A stretch of 64,000 nt of DNA from Candidatus Manganitrophus sp. GTDB taxonomy: Bacteria > Nitrospirota > Nitrospiria > SBBL01 > Manganitrophaceae. Below, one piece after another: positions 7,704 to 52,683 of the stretch. The notes under the pieces are model-generated. The model was not told the origin of the DNA and searched no databases. It saw only the letters and a program-made list of their open reading frames with translations. Numbering within the stretch: position 1 is the first letter of the stretch; every line of letters starts with the position of its first letter. The stretch covers positions 3,864,001-3,928,000 of the forward strand of contig CP114561.1 of assembly GCA_028865235.1 (NCBI GenBank), given 5' to 3'. Both the position numbers and the translations under genes were made by a program.

Positions 7704-7737
7704 AATAAAAAAGCCGCCAAGTGAATCCTTTGGCGGC
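7704..7737 (-). terminator. Intrinsic terminator, expression platform of riboswitch 1
   Basis: On the minus strand an 8-bp stem GCCGCCAA/TTGGCGGC (7737-7713) is followed directly by TTTTTTATT. It sits immediately after the aptamer and about 125 nt before the start codon of the 344-aa secreted protein, so it is the likely on/off element of the riboswitch. Confidence 0.8.
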
Positions 7738-7845
7738 TCGGCGGGCATGGCCTTTCAGCTTTAGCCCCGTTACTCTGCGTCCCCACCTTTCGATGGGTTT
7801 GCTCTGAGCAAAGGTCGAAATGTAACTTGAGTTACGCCATCGCGT
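7738..7845 (-). ncRNA. Class I cyclic-di-GMP riboswitch (GEMM-I) aptamer 1
   Basis: Read on the minus strand, the segment has the GEMM-I core: GAGCAAACCCA, a GAAA tetraloop, GGTGGGGACGC, then GGGGCTAAAG and GCCCGCCGAGCCGCC, matching the tetraloop/receptor arrangement of this class. The A-rich bulge after GC and the GGACGC strand are intact; the usual GCAAAGCC is GCAGAGTA here. The base preceding CAAAC is G, the identity I associate with c-di-GMP rather than cGAMP recognition. It directs the secreted protein at 6544-7578 through the terminator at 7704-7737. Confidence 0.85.
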
Positions 7846-10435: not shown

Positions 10436-10545
10436 ATGCGCCGGCATCGTCATGGCAACCAGACGAACCGTGGGAAGTGGATCCCCTACTCATCGGTCTC
10501 TTGGCTTTGCGTCCTACCCTCTCGGATAGTTTGCCCTTTTCACGA
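10436..10545 (-). ncRNA. Class I cyclic-di-GMP riboswitch (GEMM-I) aptamer 2
   Basis: The minus strand reads GGGCAAACTA, a GAGA tetraloop, then GGGTAGGACGCAAAGCC and, further on, CTGGTTGCC. These are close to the GEMM-I consensus, with a canonical GGACGCAAAGCC strand. The paired bases around the GNRA loop (CTATCC/GGGTAG) form a good stem. The G before CAAAC suggests c-di-GMP rather than cGAMP. It precedes the Fn3 protein gene. Confidence 0.9.
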
Positions 10546-42019: not shown

Positions 42020-42535
42020 TCATCTATGGAGCAAGAGGGGGGCAAGTCTGTCCTCCTTCCTCGGGGGGAACGGCTCCGACGTTGAACCGCCGCGCCGTGA
42101 TGTGACGGTCGCGCCGCTCCACCTCAGGATATCGTCGATCTGCTGATTCATGGTCGGCTTGAGGGCGCCACCTGCGAAGCCGGGCTCGGCGTCGAGGGAG
42201 AAGGGAACAACCCATAACGTGATGGGTTGATAGGATTTGAAATAATACTGAATGTTGAGTTCCGAAACGGATGGATCGTAGAACAAATGGGCATACGAGG
42301 CACTGTAACCGAGAGCAAAAATGCTGTGGATAGGCCAGGAATCGCGAAGGTGCAACGTGTTCTCGTCCACCCGCTCAACGGACCACTCCGGCTCGGCCTG
42401 TTGTGCGACTCTCTGAAGGGGGTTGTCGGGGACGCTTGCCCTGATATAACTTGCTCCTGAGCAACCAAAAGCGGCAAGCGTGAAGAACAGAAGAAAGAAC
42501 CAGAATGGCGCTGAAACTTGACGACGCAGAGACAT
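42020..42535 (-). CDS. Lipoprotein of unknown function
   Basis: 171 aa from ATG 42535 (AGGAGG 7 nt upstream; a second ATG lies two codons earlier). The signal peptide PFWFFLLFFTLAAFGC ends in a lipobox with Cys. The mature part has WSVERVDENTLHLRDSW, a tyrosine-rich stretch (YSASYAHLFYD) and YYFKSYQPITLWVVPFSLDAEPG. No family is recognised. It is probably outer- or inner-membrane attached and faces the periplasm. Confidence 0.65.
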   Translation of the reverse strand: MSLRRQVSAPFWFFLLFFTLAAFGCSGASYIRASVPDNPLQRVAQQAEPEWSVERVDENTLHLRDSWPIHSIFALGYSASYAHLFYDPSVSELNIQYYFKSYQPITLWVVPFSLDAEPGFAGGALKPTMNQQIDDILRWSGATVTSRRGGSTSEPFPPRKEDRLAPLLLHR

Positions 42536-42555
42536 GGGCATCCCTCCTTGACTGT

Positions 42556-42945
42556 CTATGTGGGTTTCTCGACGATCTTCCAGTACGAGTCCTTCCTGAT
42601 GACCTTCCCGTCCCGGAACTCCCAGTGGTCGCATCCGCGTACTCGAACTAAAACTCCGTCGGGTGTCGTGCCGGTGAGCAGCCACTCCGACACGCCCATA
42701 TTGCCGCTGACCCAATGCCGGTCATCGCTGTAGTGGACGTCCGGGAGCCCCTTGAAGCGTGTCGCTAACCCTTCTCGCACGGCCGCTTTACCGGTAAAGC
42801 GCCTTCCCCAGGGCTCCGGTCCCCGCGGCAGGTCTAACGAGCAATCGTCGGCAAAGAACGTCATGATGGCGTCCAGATCGTGGGCGTTAAATGCTTCGGT
42901 GATTGCCTTCAATGTTGCGACGGAGACCGATTGCCGTTTAGCCAT
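42556..42945 (-). CDS. SnoaL-like/ketosteroid isomerase family protein
   Basis: 129 aa from ATG 42945 (AGAGGAAC upstream). LKAITEAFNAHDLDAIMTFFADDC, GKAAVREGLATRF and VRGCDHWEFRDGKVIRKDSYWKI match the NTF2-like SnoaL fold. The ligand is unknown. It is the second SnoaL-like protein in the window; the two share the fold but little sequence. It lies 20 nt after the DHFR-like gene and probably shares its transcript. Confidence 0.85.
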   Translation of the reverse strand: MAKRQSVSVATLKAITEAFNAHDLDAIMTFFADDCSLDLPRGPEPWGRRFTGKAAVREGLATRFKGLPDVHYSDDRHWVSGNMGVSEWLLTGTTPDGVLVRVRGCDHWEFRDGKVIRKDSYWKIVEKPT

Positions 42946-42964
42946 CGCGGTTCCTCTTTTCAGC

Positions 42965-43609
42965 TCATGTTCTCTTGAGCACGACATGGGTCGCGTTTTC
43001 TGTTGCGATATGTTCAATGCATTGGTACCCCAGCTCCACCAGGTTCAATCCGGAAAAGAGGGGCTCGCCCGATCCGAGAAGGATGGGGGAGATGGCGATG
43101 TGCATTTCATCGATCCATCTTTCCTTCAAATATTGCCGGATCGTCGAAACGCCCCCTCCGACCCGAACGTCCAGGCCGTTGGCAGCCTTCTTGGCGGCGG
43201 CCAATGCGGCATCAATCCCGCCGGTCACGAAGTGAAAGGTGGTGCCCCCTTCCATCGAGATGGAGGGTCTCGGGTGGTGGGTCAGAACGAACACCGGCAC
43301 GTGATAGGGCGGGTTCTCTCCCCACCATCCTTTCCATTTTTCATCCGGCCAGGGTCCGCGCACCGGGCCGAACATGTTCCGGCCGAGAATCCATGCGCCG
43401 ATATTTTTGAAGCCGCGCGCCGCATAGTCATTGTCTGTTCCGGTGGCGCCGGCTTTATTTCCGAGCATCTTCTGAAAGGTGGCCGTCGGTAAGACCCATC
43501 CATGCAGCGCCTCTCCGCCGACCCCCAGCGGATTCTCAAGGCTCTGATGGGGCCCCGCCCCGAAGCCGTCGATCGAGATGGAGAAACTTTCCACCCGCAG
43601 TTTGCTCAT
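42965..43609 (-). CDS. RibD C-terminal/dihydrofolate reductase-like protein
   Basis: 214 aa, intact. LRVESFSISIDGFGAGPHQS, AWILGRNMFGPVRGPW, VFVLTHHPRP and ISPILLGSGEPLFSGLN match the RibD_C (YwjB/YyaP) group of the DHFR fold, which binds NADPH. It is not the housekeeping folate enzyme; members are frequent in accessory clusters and their substrates are unknown. It sits 18 nt after the methyltransferase gene. Confidence 0.88.
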   Translation of the reverse strand: MSKLRVESFSISIDGFGAGPHQSLENPLGVGGEALHGWVLPTATFQKMLGNKAGATGTDNDYAARGFKNIGAWILGRNMFGPVRGPWPDEKWKGWWGENPPYHVPVFVLTHHPRPSISMEGGTTFHFVTGGIDAALAAAKKAANGLDVRVGGGVSTIRQYLKERWIDEMHIAISPILLGSGEPLFSGLNLVELGYQCIEHIATENATHVVLKRT

Positions 43610-43626
43610 GATTCACTCCTTGGCCG

Positions 43627-44426
43627 TTAAGCCACCCCCTCTTTCCAGCCGATGACGCCAATGGTCGCATAATAAATCGCCGATGAATCGGGGTCGGCGG
43701 TGAAGGCTTCGTAGTCGTCGATATCGGCCGGGGCGGCTTTCCCCGTGGCGATATATTTTTCCTTCAATGGGATCGAGGACATCCTCATCATCTCGGCGAT
43801 TTCCGATCCGCCTCGGGAAATCGGGGCGTCATTCTCAACCACGACCTCCTTCGCTCCCAACTCCTGAAAAAGGACAGGAAGCTTCATTCCCAAAGCGGGA
43901 TCGATCCCTTTGGAAGAATACATCTCGTTAATGGCTTGGTGGATGTTTTTGAAGGCCCGTTTTCCCGCGTCGCTCCCTTCGATCGCGCGAAAGGAAGAAA
44001 AGTCCGGCTCCTCGATGACGAGGCTTCCCCCGGCTTCAGCGATCTCCAGAGGGTTTGCAGGACGGTTTGATATTCCGAGATATGGACCAGAACGTAGCGG
44101 GCGTGAATCAGATCGAATGAATCGGGTTTCAAAGGGACCGTCTGAATGTCGCCGCATAAGAGCTGTACATTCGGCGGCGGATTGCTGATGAAGCGCGTGT
44201 TGATATCGACGGCGGTCACGTGGCCGGAGGGGCCGATCTCGGAGGCGATCCAGGCCATGATCGAGCCGGCGCCGGCCCCGACTTCCAGGCAGCGCATTCC
44301 TCTTTTCAGGCCGGCGGAAAGGAGTCGGCGGCGCGTTTCCGGATCAAAGATCGCCTCGATCGATCTCAGGCGATTCAATTCGGCTTGAAATGAAGTGTTT
44401 TGAAAAACATACTCGGTCCGGCTCAT
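43627..44426 (-). CDS. Class I SAM-dependent methyltransferase, frameshifted
   Basis: About 266 aa when rejoined. LRSIEAIFDPETRRRL, motif I CLEVGAGAGSIMAW, HVTAVDINTRF and FDLIHARYVLVHI precede a missing base in the C5 run at 44027-44031. After repair it reads LKPGGSLVIEEPDFSS and continues with the C-terminal region EMMRMSSIPLKEKYIA. It resembles arsenite- or ubiquinone-type methyltransferases, but the substrate cannot be fixed. The start overlaps the stop of the DUF1801 gene (ATGA at 44426-44423). Confidence 0.8.
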
Positions 44427-44803
44427 TGGAACTCCGCTCCGGCCTCATCTGCGCTCAGCCGTTCTTTAATGTCCGCGTATGCGGCGAGGACCAGGGCTTC
44501 CAAAGCCGCACTGTCGATGGGGATTCCCGGTTTCAGTTTGACGTGGCGCATGTATTTTCCGGTTCCCTCCAACAGGCGGGCGGGGTCGCGCACAGATGCG
44601 CCGTGGAAGAAGCCGACGTTGACGTGCGCCCTGAAGACACCCACGTATCCAAAAGGGGCATCTTCTACACACGCCGTTGGATACCCGTCATGCATCAGCT
44701 CTCGAACATCGGCGCCGCATTGGCGCATTTTCGAAAACCACGTCCGGGCAATGAAGCCCAGCTGGGCGGGCCGTTCGGCCAGCCAGGTGTCGATTGTCGG
44801 ATC
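44423..44803 (-). CDS. DUF1801-family protein, start uncertain
   Basis: The frame reads DPTIDTWLAERPAQLGFIAR, MRQCGADVRELMHDGYPTAC, FGYVGVFRAHVNVGFFHGA and KYMRHVKLKPG, a typical DUF1801 (YdhG-like) protein. The only ATG (44728) would cut off the conserved first helix. The frame stays open to 44876 without ATG, GTG or TTG, so the true start may be a rare codon or be lost through an indel. The coordinate given starts at the first conserved residue. The gene is coupled to the methyltransferase by an ATGA overlap. Function of the family is unknown. Confidence 0.65.
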   Translation of the reverse strand, partial: DPTIDTWLAERPAQLGFIARTWFSKMRQCGADVRELMHDGYPTACVEDAPFGYVGVFRAHVNVGFFHGASVRDPARLLEGTGKYMRHVKLKPGIPIDSAALEALVLAAYADIKERLSADEAGAEFQ

Positions 44804-44875
44804 TCTTCGGACGGCTCCCGAAAATCGAAGTAAGGCGTACAGGACCCAGACCTCCCCACTCTTTTACTGTTAATT

Positions 44876-44882
44876 GTTAGGC
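44876..44882 (-). other. attC-like box GCCTAAC overlapping a stop codon
   Basis: The minus strand reads GCCTAAC, matching the integron R'' consensus RYYYAAC, with the stop codon TAA of the membrane-protein gene inside it, as in typical gene cassettes. The matching right-hand box (GTTRRRY) is not evident downstream. Confidence 0.35.
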
Positions 44883-45269
44883 GCTGCCCCGTTCGGGTTG
44901 CCCGCGCGCGGCACGCCGAAACAGCCAGGCCGATCCGGAAAACAACGCGATGAAGAACCCATTGAGCAGAATAATCTCCGCCGGCGGGCTCCACGGCAGA
45001 CCCAACCCTGCGATCAGCGCGATCGCGGCGACCAACCCCTGCGCGAGCGCCGTCGCGAACAACGCGCGCGCCATCCCCTGGGGTTGGAAGCGCGCGATAA
45101 TGGCGCGGATGATTCCGACGGCGAGCACTCCGAAATACATCCGGTTGGCGGGATCGCCGTCCGCCCCGATGATGCCGACGCCCAGACTCAGCCAGACGAG
45201 GAGGGCTGCTGCAGCGAGCGCAACGCCGATGGCGGATCGGTACGTGGTGCTGTTTACACGTGTTCGCAT
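44877..45269 (-). CDS. Small integral membrane protein of unknown function
   Basis: 130 aa with about four hydrophobic segments: IGVALAAAALLVWLSLGVGI, MYFGVLAVGIIRAIIA, LFATALAQGLVAAIALIAGL and IILLNGFFIALFSGSAWLF, and a basic C-terminus. No family recognised with certainty. It is flanked by attC-like boxes (GTTAGAG 26 nt before the start; GCCTAAC over the stop), suggesting it travels as a cassette. Confidence 0.6.
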   Translation of the reverse strand: MRTRVNSTTYRSAIGVALAAAALLVWLSLGVGIIGADGDPANRMYFGVLAVGIIRAIIARFQPQGMARALFATALAQGLVAAIALIAGLGLPWSPPAEIILLNGFFIALFSGSAWLFRRAARGQPERGSA

Positions 45270-45295
45270 GAGCGTGTCTCTAATATCATGCTAGG

Positions 45296-45302
45296 CTCTA
45301 AC
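45296..45302 (-). other. attC-like right box GTTAGAG
   Basis: Minus-strand GTTAGAGCC, 26 nt before the membrane-protein start. It follows an inverted repeat AATCCGT/ACGGATT (near 45319-45334). One base off the GTTRRRY consensus. Confidence 0.3.
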
Positions 45303-45359
45303 TTACAATAGAAAGGTGAATCCGTCACGGATTCTTTGTGAAGCGAGGAAGAAGTCGGC

Positions 45360-45432
45360 GCCTAACGTATAGAATTCAGCTTAAGGGCTGTCAAGAATTT
45401 AAGTATGGTGTCCCCGGAATTCCGCGTTAGTC
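45360..45432 (-). other. attC-like site between TolB-like and membrane-protein genes
   Basis: The minus strand starts GACTAACGCGGAATTC six nt after the TolB-like stop and ends GAATTCTATACGTTAGGC. CTAACG/CGTTAG and GAATTC/GAATTC form nested arms, and GTTAGGC fits the R' consensus exactly. The interior contains the REP-like phrase GGGGACACCATACTTAA. This is the best attC candidate by box sequence. Confidence 0.5.
45389..45426 (+). repeat. Partial copy 4 of the dispersed repeat
   Basis: TGTCAAGAATTTAAGTATGG, then TGTCCCCGGAAT, matches the right half of copies 1-3 (GTCAAGAATGATGTAGGGTG, then TTCCTGGAAT in copy 2). It lies inside the attC-like site. Confidence 0.55.
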
Positions 45433-45438
45433 ATACAA

Positions 45439-46469
45439 CTACTTAATATCAACCTGCTTTAACCGGGATCCGTCTTTATTAATTATCCATAACCGGGGCT
45501 CGCTTCTAGAACTAAACAGGCCGTCGTTAATGTATTCAACCGTGCGGAAAACGAGACGCGAGCCATCCTTTGAAAAGTGCGCATCATATATTGGTCCTTC
45601 TAAGTTCGTAACCCGTTTTGCCTTATTGGTTTTCATGTCCATAATGTAAACTTCTCGACGGTATTCCTTCGAGTAATGACCCTCCCAGGTAAAAAGGAGG
45701 GAAGTCCCGTCTGGCGAGAACTCCGGGCCATATAACCTGTCGTAACTAATCGCTTTCAAATTAAGCAAGGGTAATCTGCTTTTATAGAGATCGAGATCCG
45801 GCTCGAGAGGTCTCCTGGATGTCGGGTTATCGATAGGAATCTGCCACACGGAATACAGTCCCTTATACTCGAAAAGAGTTGCCATGAGAGTTTTGCCATC
45901 GGGGCTTATGGATAAATCTCCTATTCGATAATACCTGTCGAAGGTGATCCTCTTCAGATCGGAGCCGTCGATATTGATGGAATAAACGTCAATATTATGC
46001 CATGCCGGCATTGCGACGGGAGAAAAGTTTCCCCACCATGCAGCTCGTAAAAAAATATCCTTTTCCCATCAGGAGAGAATATCGGGTTAAAGTCATGCTC
46101 AGGTCCCGTGGTCAGGAATATCTTTTCCGAACCATCCGGCTTCATCAAGCACAAATCGGCCTGTTTATTGTTCGATATTGAAGAAAACAATATCTTTGCG
46201 CCATCCGGTGAATAAACGGGATCAAAATCAAAAGTGTCGCCTTTAGTGAGGGCGACAAGACCCATTCCATCGGTTTTGACCTTGTAAATGTTACTGCTTT
46301 TCTCAGTCCGAATTGAAAATACAATTTCATTTCCATCTGGCGTAAATCTCGCTGGCCCTATATCTTTTCCGCTTAAGAAGGTTGTTTCCGATTTCTTTGG
46401 CATGGTTATGCAGCCAGAAAGAAGCGAGTAGGCGAGGAAGGTCAAAAGAACGATTTTCGTAAATTTCAT
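45439..46469 (-). CDS. TolB-like PD40 beta-propeller lipoprotein, frameshifted
   Basis: About 343 aa when rejoined. The signal peptide KIVLLTFLAYSLLSGC has a lipobox Cys. Propeller blades show the PD40 motif repeatedly: ARFTPDGNEIVFSIR, PVYSPDGAKILFSS, PIFSPDGKRIFFY, LSISPDGKTLMAT, PEFSPDGTSLLFTW and AHFSKDGSRLVFR. A one-base indel near 46037 splits it after FFYELHG. Base composition is AT-rich relative to the core genes. It is probably a periplasmic protein-interaction module; the true TolB partners (TolA, Pal) are not nearby, so it is not the cell-envelope TolB itself. Confidence 0.75.
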
Positions 46470-46480
46470 GTGCGTCGACA

Positions 46481-46500
46481 GGGTCAGGTCTTTACTTTGC
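46481..46500. repeat. Solo REP-like arm
   Basis: GGGTCAGGTCTTTACTTTGC resembles one arm of the palindrome at 46564-46643 (GGGTCAAGTCTTGA). No matching second arm is visible nearby. It is located in the leader of the TolB-like gene. Confidence 0.4.
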
Positions 46501-46563
46501 CATCAAGAATTCCGTGGATCTTTTTTCTGAATTGCTTATCGTTTTCTATTCGTATTAAAGAAT

Positions 46564-46643
46564 GGGGTCAAGTCTTGATAATTGATGTTTTCGGTTCTTT
46601 TATTACAGCGCAGCCTGCATTATCAATATTCAAGACTTGACCC
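46564..46643. repeat. REP-like palindrome with 14-bp perfect arms
   Basis: GGGTCAAGTCTTGA (46565-46578) and TCAAGACTTGACCC (46630-46643) are exact complements; inner segments ATAATTGAT and ATTATCAAT extend the pairing. It lies directly after the AbiGi-like stop codon. The form matches REP elements mobilised by RAYT/IS200-type enzymes. Confidence 0.7.
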
Positions 46644-46664
46644 TAATTTTCTAATTTTTTTCGA

Positions 46665-47398
46665 TCAATCCTCATCGTGCTTCTCATTGATAAGATCCTC
46701 ATATGCCACAATTTGAAATCCATTAGGATTCTCGATCTTGCCATGGCAGTTTCGTGGTGCAATGAGGAAGGCGATATCCTCCCTACTGAAAGCAAAATAG
46801 GACTTATCACCCTCTGTGACAAGTTTGCCCGTGTAAGGGGGTAACCTTCTCTCTGAGACCAGTATTTTGCATTCGGGCGACGGAGTTTCTCCTCTGGGAC
46901 GAGTGTCTGTTCTCCGAGTCGCCACTCCCGTTCATAATAGAACGTGTCATGGCCATCAGCACGACCGTCAGAAAGCCGCTGGATGAAGTAGAAATGTCTG
47001 TGCAAGGCTCGAAACAGATTGGACGGCAACGTCGTCTGCTGCACTTGCTCTTGAAGGAAGTGAAAGATCGTGTCCATGTCACGTTTGCAGGCATGCGATG
47101 CGTAAAATACCGGTTGAGCTCCGACGTTCATCAGCTTCAACTTCTGAAACGCAATTCCAAATCTGCCATACCGCTTGCAGTGCTCGCTGGAGTGCCGAAG
47201 AGGTACATCTGTGAAGCAGACCATCTTTTCGTTGATCTCGTGGGACCAGTCGAAAAGGTGAAGACGGTTGTATGATAGGAATAGCCGGAGCGTGGACGCA
47301 ATAGTGCCGAGGATGCTGGCGCCGTGTGCGCCGCCTTTTTTCCCCGTCCAGTGTATCAGGTAGTCACTGATATAGCCGTTGTCTGTGGGTGTACTCAT
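46665..47398 (-). CDS. AbiGi-like abortive-infection protein, frameshifted
   Basis: About 245 aa when rejoined, from ATG 47398. YISDYLIHWTGKKGGAHGAS, MVCFTDVPLRHSSEHCKRYG, RFGIAFQKLKLM and YEREWRLGEQ match the AbiGi family (putative antitoxin/phage-resistance protein, PF10899). One missing base in the plus-strand G5 run near 46835 separates it from PPYTGKLVTEGDKSYFAFSR, EDIAFLIAPRNC and the stop at 46665. Family members are reported in abortive infection, but the mechanism is unclear and no AbiGii partner is present here. An attC-like site ends 5 nt before the start. Confidence 0.7.
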
Positions 47399-47403
47399 CT
47401 CTT

Positions 47404-47491
47404 GATCGAACGTTAAGGTGAGCCGCCGCGAAAGGAAGCTCCACAAAATACGACGGCTTTATGCGGTCGGCTCCAGTGGAAGGTTAGAGCC
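47404..47491 (-). other. attC-like site between PIN-domain and AbiGi-like genes
   Basis: The minus strand reads GGCTCTAACC four nt after the PIN-gene stop, then CTGGAGCCGACCGC ... GCGGCGGCTCACC and AACGTTCGATC five nt before the next ATG. The arms GAGCCGACCGC and GCGGCGGCTC pair with one unpaired base, which is the typical attC L''/L' asymmetry. The outer box GTTCGAT has one mismatch to GTTRRRY. Confidence 0.5.
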
Positions 47492-47493
47492 CA

Positions 47494-47985
47494 TTATGGC
47501 GCAGCCTCCTCCATGAAGTTCCATACTCGTATCCCCTCCTGTCGTGCAGCCACCGTGAGATTTTTGTCTCCAGTAACGAGAATGGTTTTTGAGTCCCCAA
47601 CCAAACCAGAAAAATAACCAGCCTTGACACTGAGAATCTGAAAAGCATCTGATAAGTCCAATGACGTATTTTTGGAGAGTCGCTGCGCATCAGCAAATGT
47701 CGTTCGTGATGTAAAGTCGATGTCATTTATGCGCACCGTTGCAGCGCGGTACCAGGCCGCAAGTTGAAAGGAAGCTTCAAGGTATTGGTCTCGTGAGATC
47801 TCCTTTCGGTACAGCCATTTCACTTTGAGTACGTTTAAAGCTTCGTAGAAGCAGAACGGCGTTGTGTACTTTGTTGCTTCATGATTGAAGTAGTGTCGCA
47901 CTACATCCGCCCCATCCTCATCAACATGAAGTTTAACGAGGGCAGATGCATCAAAGCAGTTGGCGCGAACCGCGATGCTAGTCAT
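47494..47985 (-). CDS. PIN-domain (VapC-like) nuclease
   Basis: 163 aa. The acidic residues of the PIN active site can be placed in CFDASALVKLHVDEDG (first Asp), FYEALNVLK (Glu), LDLSDAFQILS (Asp) and LVTGDKNLTVAA (last Asp). VapC toxins cleave tRNA or rRNA. A classical VapB antitoxin (AbrB, Phd or RHH type) is not encoded next to it; the upstream 66-aa gene has no such motif. It could be an orphan toxin or a solo PIN nuclease. An attC-like box (GTTAGAG) ends 7 nt before its start. Confidence 0.85.
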   Translation of the reverse strand: MTSIAVRANCFDASALVKLHVDEDGADVVRHYFNHEATKYTTPFCFYEALNVLKVKWLYRKEISRDQYLEASFQLAAWYRAATVRINDIDFTSRTTFADAQRLSKNTSLDLSDAFQILSVKAGYFSGLVGDSKTILVTGDKNLTVAARQEGIRVWNFMEEAAP

Positions 47986-47992
47986 TGATGGA

Positions 47993-47999
47993 CTCTAAC
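47993..47999 (-). other. attC-like right box GTTAGAG
   Basis: Minus-strand CATGTTAGAGTCC ends 7 nt before the PIN-gene start codon. The left half of the presumed site appears displaced by the REP-like palindrome at 48026-48083. Confidence 0.3.
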
Positions 48000-48025
48000 A
48001 TGTATAGACATCCAGAGTAACATCG

Positions 48026-48083
48026 GGGCCAGGTCTACAAATTATGTATTAGAATTCTAAAGTCAATTTCGTAGACCTGGCCC
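48026..48083. repeat. REP-like palindrome, 13-bp perfect arms
   Basis: GGGCCAGGTCTAC (48026-48038) and GTAGACCTGGCCC (48071-48083) are exact complements. It is homologous along its length to the palindrome at 48337-48396. It overlaps the last codons of the 66-aa gene. Confidence 0.75.
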
Positions 48084-48263
48084 TTTTATACGCCGAAACA
48101 GATCATGGGCCTCTGACAACTCTGAAGGGGTCAGGCCGGCAAGCCGTCTGATGGTCGGCGTGTCGGTTTCGGTTTCCAACAGAGCGACCGAAATCGCTGG
48201 GATCTCTTCACGGCGAAGGTGTGCATGAAAAAGCAGTGCTTCGGCTACATCGACTGTCATCAT
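48063..48263 (-). CDS. Small protein (66 aa), C-terminus altered by a REP element
   Basis: Begins MMTVDVAEALLFHAHLRREE and contains LLETETDTPTIRRLAGLTP and EAHDLFRRI; the pattern ETxTPxxRRLAGL...DLF is shared with small helical proteins of unknown function. The last seven residues (KGPGLRN) are read from the REP palindrome, so the original C-terminus was probably cut. It precedes the PIN gene by 77 nt but shows no antitoxin DNA-binding motif. Confidence 0.5.
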   Translation of the reverse strand: MMTVDVAEALLFHAHLRREEIPAISVALLETETDTPTIRRLAGLTPSELSEAHDLFRRIKGPGLRN

Positions 48264-48273
48264 CCACTACACC

Positions 48274-48455
48274 TTCTAACGTTTGTAATTCCGGGGATTT
48301 CCTTCGCGCTTTCTCGGCGGCGAACGTTAACTAGTCGGGACCAGGTCTACAAATTGTGTACTAGAGTTTCTATAGTCAAGTTTGTAGACCTGTCCCTATT
48401 TCGAGGTCATTACAACTTAAAAAATGCGACCGTTTTATGTGGTCGGCTCCAGCAG
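48274..48455 (-). other. attC-like site after the HsdR_N-like gene, interrupted by a REP element
   Basis: The left part GAACCCCTGCTGGAGCCGAC overlaps the 3' end of the HsdR_N-like gene and aligns with TAACCTTCCACTGGAGCCGA of the site at 47404-47491. After the REP palindrome the sequence resumes with TTAACGTTCG, then a second right-hand box AACGTTAGAAGG 10 nt before the next start codon. Confidence 0.4.
48337..48396. repeat. REP-like palindrome, second copy
   Basis: GGGACCAGGTCTACAAA and TTTGTAGACCTGTCCC are complements apart from one extra C. The interior (TGTGTACTAGAG, TATAGTCAA) aligns with the 48026-48083 copy (TATGTATTAGAA, TAAAGTCAA), so both derive from one element. Confidence 0.75.
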
Positions 48456-49280
48456 GGGTTCTCCTTTCCCTGCTGAGGGTGCTAGTGCGGCACTGGAAAT
48501 TGGCGAGGGCTCGCTCACCTCTTCTTGTTTTTCTCTCTTGGAGCGGAGTAATCGACCAGCAGTTTTTTGAAGCTTTTTACGGGCTGCCTCGGCTTTATCA
48601 CCTTCGATGACTTCCCGCTTTAGGACCTCTTGTTTCAGAGCTGATCGAAGGTCCTCAATTTGGACCTTCACTTCGGGTGAAAGCCTCCTCAGCTCTCTAC
48701 GCATTGATTCGAGTACGGCATCGCCTAAGAGCACTGCACCAAGATAGAATTTGTTGGTTGCTTGTAGTTGATCGTGATAGGCATATAGGCCGGATTTGAG
48801 CATACTTTCACGTGTAAGGAGAAATAAACTTTCGAGGTGGCTTAGGTCTTTGTGATTTAGCGATAGAAGGTCGATATCGAGAACGACTTCAGCGTCGATG
48901 GGCTTGGCAAATATAACCCTGAACACCTTCCAAATGCTCCCATTTGTTAATGCGATCCACTCTATACCCTGATTTGCGCCGTAGTCTACCGCTTGCTTCA
49001 CATGGCTATCTTTTAGATCTAGACCGATTGCTTTGACCTCGACAAGCATCTGGAATTTGCCGTCGATCCGTGTTGCAAGGTCACAGAACGTTCCTCGTAT
49101 GCATAATTCGCGTGTGATCTCGCTGTATTTGTCATAGCCGAAAAGCTCGGCCATCAGGTCAGTGACCATTATAGAAGTATCGGATTCGTTGACATCGCGG
49201 TGCTTGGCTGCTGCGAGAATAGGCTGAAATCGCTTTAGGCCTGAAGCAAGACGGTCGGCTACCTTGCTGGGAATTGGCAT
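48435..49280 (-). CDS. HsdR N-terminal-domain-like (type I restriction-related) protein
   Basis: 281 aa, intact. VADRLASGLKRFQPILAAAK, ESDTSIMVTDLMAELFGYDK, FCDLATRIDGKFQMLVEVKA (nuclease-type D...E-x-K) and YGANQGIEWIALTNGSIWKV match the HSDR_N_2 fold, the PD-(D/E)xK module of restriction subunits. There is no helicase domain. A coiled, charged C-terminus (KAEAARKKLQKTAGRLL) replaces it. Stand-alone versions are common and possibly defence-linked; DNA cleavage is unproven. Its stop codon lies in the hairpin CGACC/GGTCG before a T6 run, which may serve as terminator. Confidence 0.8.
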   Translation of the reverse strand: MPIPSKVADRLASGLKRFQPILAAAKHRDVNESDTSIMVTDLMAELFGYDKYSEITRELCIRGTFCDLATRIDGKFQMLVEVKAIGLDLKDSHVKQAVDYGANQGIEWIALTNGSIWKVFRVIFAKPIDAEVVLDIDLLSLNHKDLSHLESLFLLTRESMLKSGLYAYHDQLQATNKFYLGAVLLGDAVLESMRRELRRLSPEVKVQIEDLRSALKQEVLKREVIEGDKAEAARKKLQKTAGRLLRSKREKQEEVSEPSPISSAALAPSAGKGEPLLEPTT

Positions 49281-49447
49281 TGGTTTATCTCCCCTTATTA
49301 GACTGTATTAGTTGTTTTGATCTCATTTGCTGCCTTTCATATTAGGAGATTAAAAAAAAGCAATGAAATTAACTGCTTTTGATATGAGGAAGAGGTATCT
49401 TAACGCATACGCCAGAAAGCCAAGTATTGAGAAGAGCAGATCGCCTT

Positions 49448-49487
49448 AGAAAAAAAAAACCCAAGGATTTATTGAAATCCTTGGGTT
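49448..49487 (-). terminator. metG: Intrinsic terminator of the tmk-holB-metG operon
   Basis: AACCCAAGGATTT and AAATCCTTGGGTT form a perfect 13-bp stem with an ATTG loop; on the minus strand it is followed by about ten T. It lies 140 nt beyond the metG stop. Between them (49490-49620) no credible gene is seen. Confidence 0.85.
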
Positions 49488-49624
49488 CAATTAGAGCGAC
49501 AGAAATCTGCAAGCTCAAGATCGATCACGATCATTTCCCCTGGCTGGATTATCTTTAGGTTCAGCTTGGCAGGGAATCTATCATGACTTACAAAAGGGTG
49601 TCAATATGAAGATTCTCGGATGGG

Positions 49625-51598
49625 CTATTTAATCCGAGTCCCAGGCGGGATCTCTTCAAGAAAGGTCGCCAACTCCAAAACCTCCTCCGCCCCCGCGGCA
49701 AGCAGCATCCCCTGCGACTCCACCCCCATGATCTTAGCAGGCTGAAGATTCGCCACCAGCACGATCCGCTTTCCGATCAGCGCCTCCGGCGCATACTTCG
49801 TCCCGATGCCGGCAACGACCTGCCGCTCCTCCGAGCCGAGCGAAACGCGCAGCTTGAGGAGCTTCTTCGATCCGGGAACTTTTTCGGCGGCGAGAATCAC
49901 CGCCACGCGCAGGTCGATCTTGGCAAAGTCATCGTAGGCAATAGCAGGGTTTAAAACCGGCCGGGGAGGCCGGAGCGCTCTTTTTTTCGGCAGGGGCTTT
50001 TTCAGCGGGGGTGGGAGCAGCGGCGGTCGGTTCTTTTTCCAATGTCTTCTCCGTCTTTTTTTCGATGCGTGGAAAGAGCGATTTTCCCTTGGCGATTGGC
50101 ATTTCGGCCGGCAGCCGGCCCCATTGCGCCGCCTCCTTCAGTGAGATCCCTTCGAAGAGAGGGGAGTCCCATCTGCCGCGCCATCTCTAACGCCGTCGCC
50201 GGCATAAACGGGGAGACGAAGAGGGTGACGATCCGGAGCGCCTCGGTCGTATGGTAGAGGACCGTCTGCAGCCGCTCCGCGTTGGCGGGATCTTTCGCCA
50301 GGACCCATGGCGCGGCCCCCTCGATATACCGGTTCGCCTGATTGACCGCGTCCCAAATCTCGATCAACACCTTCTGAAATTCCAGCTTTCCGAGCAGGAC
50401 ATCGACCCGCGCCGGCAGCGCCTCCATCTTTCGCCGCAGATCGAGATCTTCCGGCTGCTTCCCCTCGTGCGCGGGGGGTGCGGCCGCCGGTGTAGCGCTC
50501 CAACATCGTCAGCGTCCGCGAGAGAAGATTGCCGAGGTCGTTCGCGAGATCACTGTTGATCCGGTTGATCAGCGCCGTCTCGGAGAAGTCGCCGTCCTGC
50601 CCGAAGGGAACTTCCCGGAAAAGAAAATAGCGGAAGGGATCGACGCCGTACCGGTCGATCACCTCGCCGGGATTCACGACGTTGCCGCGGCTCTTCGACA
50701 TCTTCTGTCCGTCCACCGTCCACCAGCCATGCGCAAAAAGGGTCTTCGGGAGGGGGAGGCCGAGCGCCATCAGGATCGTCGACCAGTAGACGGCATGTGT
50801 TGTCAGAATATCTTTCCCGACGAGATGAAGATCGGCCGGCCACCATTTTTGAAAACGGGCCGGATCGGTGGCGTAACCGGGGATCGAGATGTAGTTGACC
50901 AGCGCATCGAGCCAGACATAGGTCACATAGTTTGTGTCGAACGGAAATTCGATCCCCCAGGGCAGGCGGCTCTTGGGACGGGAGATGCAGAGATCGCCGA
51001 GCGGCTTCTCCAAAAATCCCAAGACCTCGTTCCGCCGGCTCTCCGGCTGAATGAAGGTAGGGTTGTCGCGAATATATTGCTGGAGGCGGCCTTGGTATTG
51101 GCTCATTTTGAAGAAGTAGTTCTGCTCCGAAAGATGCTCCACCGGTCTTCCGCAGTCGGGGCATTTTCCGTCGACCAGATCTTTCTCGGTCCAGAACCGC
51201 TCGTCGGGGAGACAGTACCATCCTTCGTAGCTGTCGGTGTAGAGCTCTTCCTTCTCCTTCAGCTCTTTCAGAACGGTCTGAACCACCCGCTTGTGCCGCT
51301 CCTGGGTTGTCCGGACGAAATCGTCGTTGGAGATGCCGAGCTTCTTCCAGAGCGCCTGAAAGCGAACGACCGTCTCGTCGGCATGCTGCTGCGGGGGAAC
51401 GTTCCGCTTGGCGGCGGCCTGCGCCACCTTCTGCCCATGCTCGTCGGTGCCGGTGAGAAAGAAGACATCATGTCCAAGCAGCCGGTGGTAGCGGGCGAGG
51501 ACGTCGGCGGCGATCGTGGTGTAGGCATGGCCGATGTGCGGCTCATCATTCACATAATAGATCGGAGTGGTCAGGTAGAACTTTTCTTTGGAGGTCAT
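49625..51598 (-). CDS. metG: Methionyl-tRNA synthetase, multiply frameshifted
   Basis: About 658 aa when rejoined; ATG 51598 overlaps the holB stop (ATGA). The catalytic domain has YYVNDEPHIGHAYTT (HIGH), a zinc knuckle CPDCGRPVE, YVWLDALVNYIS and GQKMSKSRGN (KMSKS). After ERYTGG, single-base indels near 50475 (G6 run), 50130 and 49955 split the anticodon-binding domain (ALPARVDVLLGKLEFQKVL, ANRYIEGAAPWVLAK) and the C-terminal EMAP/tRNA-binding domain (IDLRVAVILAAEKVPGSKKL, VVAGIGTKYAPE). It charges tRNA-Met in the cytoplasm. An essential gene with three or more frameshifts strongly suggests sequence error. Confidence 0.88.
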
Positions 51599-52683
51599 CC
51601 GGAGGCCTTCTGTTTTTGGCTCAGCACTTTGTCTCTTAATTGCATCAGGAGCGTTTCGAGGGCGAGCTGGCGGTTGACGTTGCGGACCTGCGCCTGGTAA
51701 ATCTCTTGAATGTCGGCCAGGAACGATCCGACTTCGTGTGAATTCATCCGCGCCGCCCATCGCCGGATCTCCTCATGCCGCCAGCTGTAGACGAGCCAGG
51801 AGGGATCGAGGATTTCCGGATTCGGGACCGATTGCAGCACTAGGACATCGCGGAACCAGGCGGAGAGATAGTGGAGCGATTGGGCCATGACCTCTTCATC
51901 CCGGGAATGGGTGGTGGCGGCGTCGAAGAGGGCGTCATAATCGTTGAGGGTCGTCTCGGAGACGAGGGTGTAGAGCGCCCCTTCGAGCTCCCGCGCCCCC
52001 TCGATCTCCAGCGAGAGCGCTTCCCCCAGATCGCCGCCGGTGAGGGAAGCGATCAACCGGGCTTCCTGAGTCGAGCATCCTTTCCGCTCGGTGAGAAGGC
52101 TCTCCACCTGCGACAGGGAGAGGGGATAGAAGGAAATTTTTTGGCAGCGGGAGAGGATCGTCTCCGGAAGGGAAAAAGGTTTTGAGGTGACCAAGATCAG
52201 GATGGCATGGCTCGGCGGCTCTTCTAAGGTTTTCAAAAGGCCGTTGGCCGCCGCGGCGTTCATCTTGTCGGCGGGGTCGATGAGGACTATCCGCTTCGGC
52301 CCGTCGAGCGGCTTGTAAATGATTTTATCCTGCAGGGCGCGGATCTGCTCGATCTTGATCGAGGCTCCTTCCGGTTCGACGATCGTCAAATCGGGATGGT
52401 TCTGCGCGGCGAATTTCTGGCAGGAAAGACACCGATTGCACGGCTCGATCCACCCTTCTGATTCCCCCTCCGGCATCCGGCGCTCGTGGCAGAGGAGCGT
52501 CTGCGCGAAGGTGAGGGCGACGGTCCGCTTGCCGATCCCCGCCTCCCCCATAAAGAGGAGGGCATGGGGGATCTCCTCGGAGAGGAGCATCGATTGCAGG
52601 ATATCGAGCGCCCGCGGGTGCCCGATAATATTACGAAAGCCACCCTGAAAAGCGGGCTTGTCAGGGGACCCGGAAATAGTCAT
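51595..52683 (-). CDS. holB: DNA polymerase III delta' subunit
   Basis: 362 aa from ATG 52683, chosen because GGAGGCGGTGG precedes it and it overlaps the end of tmk by 23 nt. Walker A ALLFMGEAGIGKRTVALTFA, a four-Cys zinc module (CHERR...CNRCLSC), IVLIDPADKMNAAAANGLLK and the sensor motif SRCQKISFYPLS match HolB. It is part of the clamp loader that places the beta clamp on DNA. The order tmk-holB-metG is conserved in many bacteria. Confidence 0.88.
   Translation of the reverse strand: MTISGSPDKPAFQGGFRNIIGHPRALDILQSMLLSEEIPHALLFMGEAGIGKRTVALTFAQTLLCHERRMPEGESEGWIEPCNRCLSCQKFAAQNHPDLTIVEPEGASIKIEQIRALQDKIIYKPLDGPKRIVLIDPADKMNAAAANGLLKTLEEPPSHAILILVTSKPFSLPETILSRCQKISFYPLSLSQVESLLTERKGCSTQEARLIASLTGGDLGEALSLEIEGARELEGALYTLVSETTLNDYDALFDAATTHSRDEEVMAQSLHYLSAWFRDVLVLQSVPNPEILDPSWLVYSWRHEEIRRWAARMNSHEVGSFLADIQEIYQAQVRNVNRQLALETLLMQLRDKVLSQKQKASG

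What the first reader, a model, noticed from the sequence alone, without database searches (positions are those of the whole stretch)
44870..48460. Gene-cassette-like array with attC-like boundaries and no integrase in view
Several consecutive minus-strand genes (HsdR_N-like, 66-aa, PIN, AbiGi-like, TolB-like, membrane protein) show cassette geometry. CTAAC boxes sit 4-6 nt after a stop or overlap it (47483, 45426, 44876), and GTTAGR/GTTCGA boxes sit 5-26 nt before the next start (48274, 47993, 47404, 45296). One site has GAGCCGACCGC/GCGGCGGCTC arms with an unpaired base, as in attC; another ends in an exact GTTAGGC. Three contents are defence- or toxin-like. This fits a CALIN (attC cluster lacking an integrase).
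Basis: inference. Interest (0 to 1): 0.65.

Follow-up and report, generated by a model that had tools for sequence, protein, structure and literature searches.

The report
Decayed integron cassette remnant beside metG
This stretch is the worn-out remnant of an integron (a bacterial gene-collecting system): one gene-capture site is still intact behind a toxin-like gene, the others are damaged or doubtful, and the enzyme that would move the genes was not found in this genome.

Summary
I built an attC covariance model only from 25 attC sites in integrase-bearing genomes of the same phylum. It finds one clear attC in the window: 47405-47489 (-), just after the PIN gene, 36.3 bits, E=3e-6 for the window and 2.5e-4 genome-wide. 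Its L''/L' stem is perfect (10/10), with the extrahelical A in the usual column. A sister species carries an 82% identical attC inside a five-attC cluster, behind a different gene. PIN relatives in two other bacteria sit next to attC sites. The other boundaries are weaker: HsdR_N keeps only a half-site (48421-48452); the TolB-like site (45360-45432) keeps R''/R' boxes but has a transposon-end-like core (14 bits, not significant); the membrane gene keeps only R''. With one significant attC it misses the usual CALIN threshold of two. No IntI was found in the genome (86.7% complete). The same genome holds a better, five-attC CALIN at 1.27 Mb. The site downstream of metG is variable: the sister species carries QatABCD there. 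Side-result: palindromes of one general design (GGGNCARGTCT...AGACYTGNCCC) cluster in these cassette regions in both species.

The parts
47405..47489 (-). Intact attC site of the PIN cassette (R'' CTCTAAC, L'' GAGCCG-A-CCGC, L' GCGGCGGCTC, R' GTTCGAT)
   Evidence: R2 covariance model 36.3 bits, E=3.4e-6 in 64 kb, 2.5e-4 genome-wide; 10/10 L pairs with extrahelical A; 82% identical to an attC in the sister species
47494..47985 (-). PIN-domain gene, the cassette gene of the intact attC
   Evidence: PF01850 25.3 bits; relatives at 51-55% identity sit next to attC sites in L101 and L102
47993..47999 (-). GTTAGAG, putative start of the PIN cassette, exact complement of its own R'' (CTCTAAC)
   Evidence: sequence; 7-bp match, only suggestive
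48421..48452 (-). L''-side half of an attC at the end of the HsdR_N-like gene; right half missing
   Evidence: 88% identical over 32 nt to the PIN attC, the only other such place in the genome, E=2e-4; not found by R2
48435..49280 (-). HsdR N-terminal-domain-like gene (281 aa)
   Evidence: PF13588 22.4 bits, below cut-off; 54% identity to Leptospira weilii plasmid proteins annotated as HsdR N-terminal-domain proteins
48063..48263 (-). 66-aa ORF, runs into a palindrome at its 3' end; possible antitoxin partner of PIN (inference)
   Evidence: no Pfam or PADLOC match
46643..47446 (-). AbiGi-like gene (ATG more likely at 47397), frameshifted near its C-terminus
   Evidence: PF10899 49.9 bits, PADLOC AbiGi 47 bits; C-terminus continues in another frame
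45439..46469 (-). TolB-like (PD40) gene split by a frameshift
   Evidence: PF07676 in both ORFs; frames
45360..45432 (-). Putative degenerate attC of the TolB-like gene: R'' GACTAAC and R' GTTAGGC kept, core replaced
   Evidence: R2 14.0 bits, E=0.5 in the window, not significant alone
45380..45423 (-). Transposon-end-like core (GGGGACACCATACTTAA...) inside that site
   Evidence: 86% identical over 44 nt to a place in the sister species that lies just upstream of a RAYT-like N-terminus (RAYT assignment by eye)
44877..45269 (-). Small membrane protein gene (130 aa)
   Evidence: no Pfam match; 51-64% identity to predicted proteins on rhizobial and a cyanobacterial plasmid
44876..44884 (-). GCGCCTAAC, R'' of the membrane-protein cassette, exact 9-nt complement of its start GTTAGGCGC at 45358-45366; rest of attC missing
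   Evidence: chance of a 9-nt match within 600 nt about 0.004
48335..48400 (-). Palindromic element, family 1 copy
48023..48087 (-). Palindromic element, family 1 copy (folding z = -6.4)
46558..46650 (-). Palindromic element, family 2 (GGGTCAAGTCTTGA...TCAAGACTTGACCCC; folding z = -4.4)

Best explanation
The region is a degraded, integrase-less remnant of an integron cassette array lying in a variable island downstream of metG. Accessory genes, all on one strand, were brought in as attC cassettes by an integron integrase (IntI), either one lost from this lineage or one acting from elsewhere. SHOWN: one intact attC behind PIN; homologous attC sites in a sister species' five-attC cluster and a five-attC cluster elsewhere in this genome; PIN relatives beside attC sites in other bacteria; no IntI in the held genome; different content at the same locus in the sister species. 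INFERRED: that HsdR_N, TolB-like and membrane-protein genes were cassettes too (half-site, R''/R' pair with replaced core, R'' only), and that palindromic or transposon-derived elements broke those sites. With IntI supplied in trans, only the PIN attC would be expected to recombine, through its folded bottom strand; the rest is now fixed as ordinary island genes.
For: attC model R2, built without window sequence: 36.3 bits at 47405-47489. Canonical geometry with the extrahelical base in the usual column; 0.1 such sites per shuffled window. Sister species G183 attC, 82% identical over 71 nt, behind a glyoxalase-family gene in a five-attC cluster. Own genome: five-attC cluster at C1:1270583-1273302 and a single attC at 3341739-3341841. 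PIN relatives beside attC in L101 and L102. No IntI over cut-off in G000, only XerC/D-like proteins; IntI in 60 of 246 genomes of the phylum. Window flanks syntenic with G183 but 42024-49624 replaced. Membrane cassette ends 9-nt complementary.
Against: Only one attC passes threshold; the TolB-like site is 14 bits and not significant, and the HsdR_N half-site is not found by the model. The PIN attC's R' (GTTCGAT) is off consensus and its bottom-strand fold is not better than shuffles (z -1.0), though its sister homologue is (z -3.1). The palindrome at 66-aa/PIN means the true PIN cassette start is uncertain. The genome is only 86.7% complete, so a missing IntI is weak evidence.
Confidence: 0.75

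Rival explanations
1. Only PIN is a cassette: a single PIN-attC cassette was inserted (by IntI in trans, at a secondary site) into an unrelated accessory/defence island, and the other CTAAC/GTTAG boxes are coincidence or palindrome debris.
For: Only one significant attC; no attC at 66-aa, the AbiGi-like end or the TolB-like start; palindromes sit at those boundaries; same-locus island in G183 carries QatABCD with no attC.
Against: HsdR_N ends in a half-attC of the same type, found nowhere else in the genome; membrane-protein ends are 9-nt complementary; the TolB-like site has R''/R' boxes in the right place and orientation.
Confidence: 0.17
2. A functional CALIN whose cassettes can all still be excised and shuffled by an integrase in trans.
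For: One intact attC; other attC sites in the genome.
Against: All other sites lack L boxes or halves.
Confidence: 0.04
3. An ordinary defence/accessory island; all attC-like features are chance.
For: Boxes alone are only mildly enriched; hotspot content is defence-like in both species.
Against: The PIN attC is significant genome-wide and homologous to an attC in a sister cluster; PIN relatives lie beside attC.
Confidence: 0.04

Closest known systems
CALIN (cluster of attC sites lacking an integron integrase; IntegronFinder, PMC9024848)
   Same: attC-bounded single-gene units in one orientation, no IntI found in the genome, chromosomal, variable between sister species
   Different: only one significant attC, below the default of two; neighbouring sites damaged or carrying palindromes
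CALIN in the same genome at C1:1270583-1273302 and in the sister species at G183:C20:239559-243620
   Same: same attC architecture; one G183 attC is 82% identical to the PIN attC; G183's cluster also holds palindromes of the same general design
   Different: those keep five attC each; cargo is RibD_C, YCII, MtlR-like (own) and alcohol dehydrogenase, glyoxalase (sister)
REP/RAYT-type palindromic elements
   Same: short intergenic palindromes; one core resembles sequence upstream of a RAYT-like reading frame in G183
   Different: very low copy (7 in this genome, 4 in the sister), no Y1 transposase found in the genome, concentrated near attC arrays

Membership tests
attC site (47405-47489) | R''/R' boxes with conserved AAC...GTT | tested here: met
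   CTCTAAC...GTTCGAT; R' off consensus beyond GTT
attC site (47405-47489) | L''/L' stem with extrahelical base at the usual position | tested here: met
   10/10 pairs, same geometry as seed sites
attC site (47405-47489) | Covariance-model score above threshold | tested here: met
   R2 36.3 bits, E=2.5e-4 genome-wide; model is home-made, IntegronFinder's own was not available
attC site (47405-47489) | Bottom strand recombined by IntI | not testable with these tools
   needs an assay
CALIN | At least two attC sites clustered (IntegronFinder 2.0 default) | tested here: not met
   one significant site; second candidate 14 bits, E=0.5
CALIN | No integron integrase nearby | tested here: met
   no IntI over cut-off in G000; genome 86.7% complete
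Complete integron | intI plus attI | tested here: not met
   only XerC/D-like recombinases; attI not searched
Known defence system | Complete set of required genes | tested here: not met
   window: AbiGi only (annotated antitoxin of a pair, partner not seen); PIN, HsdR_N and 66-aa without PADLOC match
RAYT/REP element | Y1 transposase in the genome | tested here: not met
   no PF01797 match in G000; remnant N-terminus by eye in G183

The most novel reading that the evidence does not exclude
Palindromic elements of the GGGNCARGTCT...AGACYTGNCCC design preferentially land in, or travel with, integron cassettes in this genus (perhaps because attC hairpins are good single-strand targets), inactivating attC sites and fixing cassettes in place, or serving as an alternative cassette boundary. 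In two species 3 of 7 and 3 of 4 copies lie within 1.5 kb of an attC (0.26% and 0.17% of the genome). The four remaining copies in this genome occur as two pairs, each around short same-strand genes.
Probability: 0.2. Interest if true: 0.55.

Novelty: new member of a known kind. Interest (0 to 1): 0.33.

Why it matters
It shows that integron cassettes reach and decay within an island downstream of metG, in a lineage where no integrase was found, and gives a concrete case of cassettes becoming fixed genes. IntegronFinder 2.0 reported only two CALIN for the phylum Nitrospira (PMC9024848); if this phylum is the same one, IntI in 60 of 246 sampled genomes makes integrons far commoner there than that record suggests. 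The palindrome association, if general, would point to a route by which cassette arrays are frozen.

Tried and rejected
Rfam: no attC family hit, only two c-di-GMP riboswitches elsewhere. Strict consensus R''/R' scan: missed the window sites, whose boxes are off consensus. First attC model R1 (loop trimmed out): missed the PIN site because it penalises the loop; replaced by R2, made from untrimmed hits; the PIN site was not used in either model. MAFFT alignment of full attC sites misaligned the L' arm. AbiGi-like protein and the PIN attC against plasmids: nothing. Palindrome against plasmids: nothing. PIN in solved structures: nothing. attC in the paired-palindrome loci L104/L105: none, so the idea that those are attC arrays too is not supported. 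Pseudogene claims for AbiGi and TolB-like dropped: metG in the window is also broken into several frames against an intact 703-aa frame in the sister, so the assembly carries indel errors. The taxon is unnamed; I think it is Nitrospirota but did not verify it.

Full report
What the sequence shows. On the minus strand between metG and a DUF1801/methyltransferase cluster lie an HsdR_N-like gene, a 66-aa ORF, a PIN gene, an AbiGi-like gene, a TolB-like gene and a small membrane protein gene. As short words they are only mildly enriched, so a structural test was needed.

Structural test. In integrase-bearing genomes of the same phylum I collected attC sites from the arrays next to IntI, all in much the same geometry: R'' (7 nt), about 9 nt, L'' with an extrahelical base usually after six pairs, variable loop, L', about 8-9 nt, R'. 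The PIN boundary, 47405-47489 (-), fits that geometry: 9/9 pairs with the loop trimmed out and 10/10 in the full site, where shuffled windows give 0.1 such sites. A covariance model (R2) built from 25 of those sites, with no sequence from the window, scores it 36.3 bits: E=7e-7 in 14 kb, 3.4e-6 in the window, 2.5e-4 in the whole genome. An earlier model (R1), built with the variable loop cut out, did not find it; I report that because the result depends on modelling the loop.

Other boundaries. HsdR_N ends in a 32-nt stretch 88% identical to the L'' half of the PIN attC, the only other such place in the genome; its right half is missing and a palindrome follows. The TolB-like gene is followed by GACTAAC ... 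GTTAGGC 73 nt long, but the stem between is replaced by a sequence (45380-45423) that matches, at 86%, a place in the sister species just upstream of a RAYT-like reading frame; the model gives 14 bits, not significant. The membrane gene begins at GTTAGGCGC and ends in GCGCCTAAC, a 9-nt complement over its own stop codon, as R'' and R' of one cassette should be (chance about 0.004), but its attC is cut off. The 66-aa ORF and the AbiGi-like end have no attC.

Relatives. The same-genus genome G183 is syntenic across the window, but 42024-49624 is replaced there by about 11 kb of other genes, including QatABCD next to metG. About 50 kb further, G183 has a cluster of five attC; one is 82% identical to the PIN attC and follows a glyoxalase-family gene, and the next gene is an Arr-type rifampin ADP-ribosyltransferase. 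The own genome has a five-attC cluster at C1:1270583-1273302 and a single attC at 3341739-3341841. PIN relatives (51-64% identity) are scattered in other bacteria; in Methylotenera sp. UBA6020 (L102) the gene lies between two attC, and in Pseudoduganella rivuli (L101) it is followed by attC and a further array. No integron integrase passes the cut-off in the own genome; the best hit examined is XerC-like; but the genome is only 86.7% complete.

Interpretation. The evidence supports a decayed, integrase-less cassette remnant with one intact attC, in a variable island that carries defence genes in the sister species. It does not meet the two-attC default for a CALIN (PMC9024848), so the label is 'single attC plus damaged neighbours'. 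That PIN alone arrived as a cassette is the main rival. Frameshifts in AbiGi and TolB-like cannot be read as decay, because metG itself is broken in this assembly.

Side-result. Palindromes of the design GGGNCARGTCT...AGACYTGNCCC occur seven times in this genome and four times in G183 (some copies found by similarity rather than by the pattern). Three of seven and three of four lie within 1.5 kb of an attC (binomial 6e-7 and 2e-8, treating copies as independent, which they may not be). The family and the 1.5-kb distance were chosen after seeing these loci, so the numbers describe the pattern rather than test it. The other four copies in the own genome form two pairs, each around short same-strand genes, with no attC there.

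Noticed in passing
G000:C1:1270583-1273302 (L088:8584-11303): A well-formed five-attC CALIN in the same genome, with YCII, two RibD_C, MtlR-like and two unassigned genes; no integrase found.
   Followed up: partly
L080:13165-18091: Complete QatABCD defence system at the metG-adjacent site of the sister species (QatA 821 bits, QatC 578 bits): a variable, defence-bearing locus.
   Followed up: partly
L092:7560-12146: Sister species' five-attC cluster with a glyoxalase-family gene, and an Arr-type rifampin ADP-ribosyltransferase gene directly after the last attC.
   Followed up: partly
L104:3183-5174 and L105:3696-4440: Two further loci where a pair of the 65-bp palindromes surrounds short same-strand genes. 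At L105 a partial copy of the thiI 3' end reappears on the far side of the inserted genes, as if something had integrated there.
   Followed up: partly
window 49628-51694: metG is split into several reading frames while the sister's is intact (703 aa): the assembly carries indel errors, so single frameshifts in the window should not be read as pseudogenes.
   Followed up: yes
window 7729-7813 and 10450-10544 (-): Two c-di-GMP-I-class riboswitches 2.6 kb apart (RF01051, RF03167).
   Followed up: no
phylum sample: Integron integrases in 60 of 246 genomes of the phylum (50 over the curated cut-off), often at contig ends, so arrays are probably under-assembled.
   Followed up: partly
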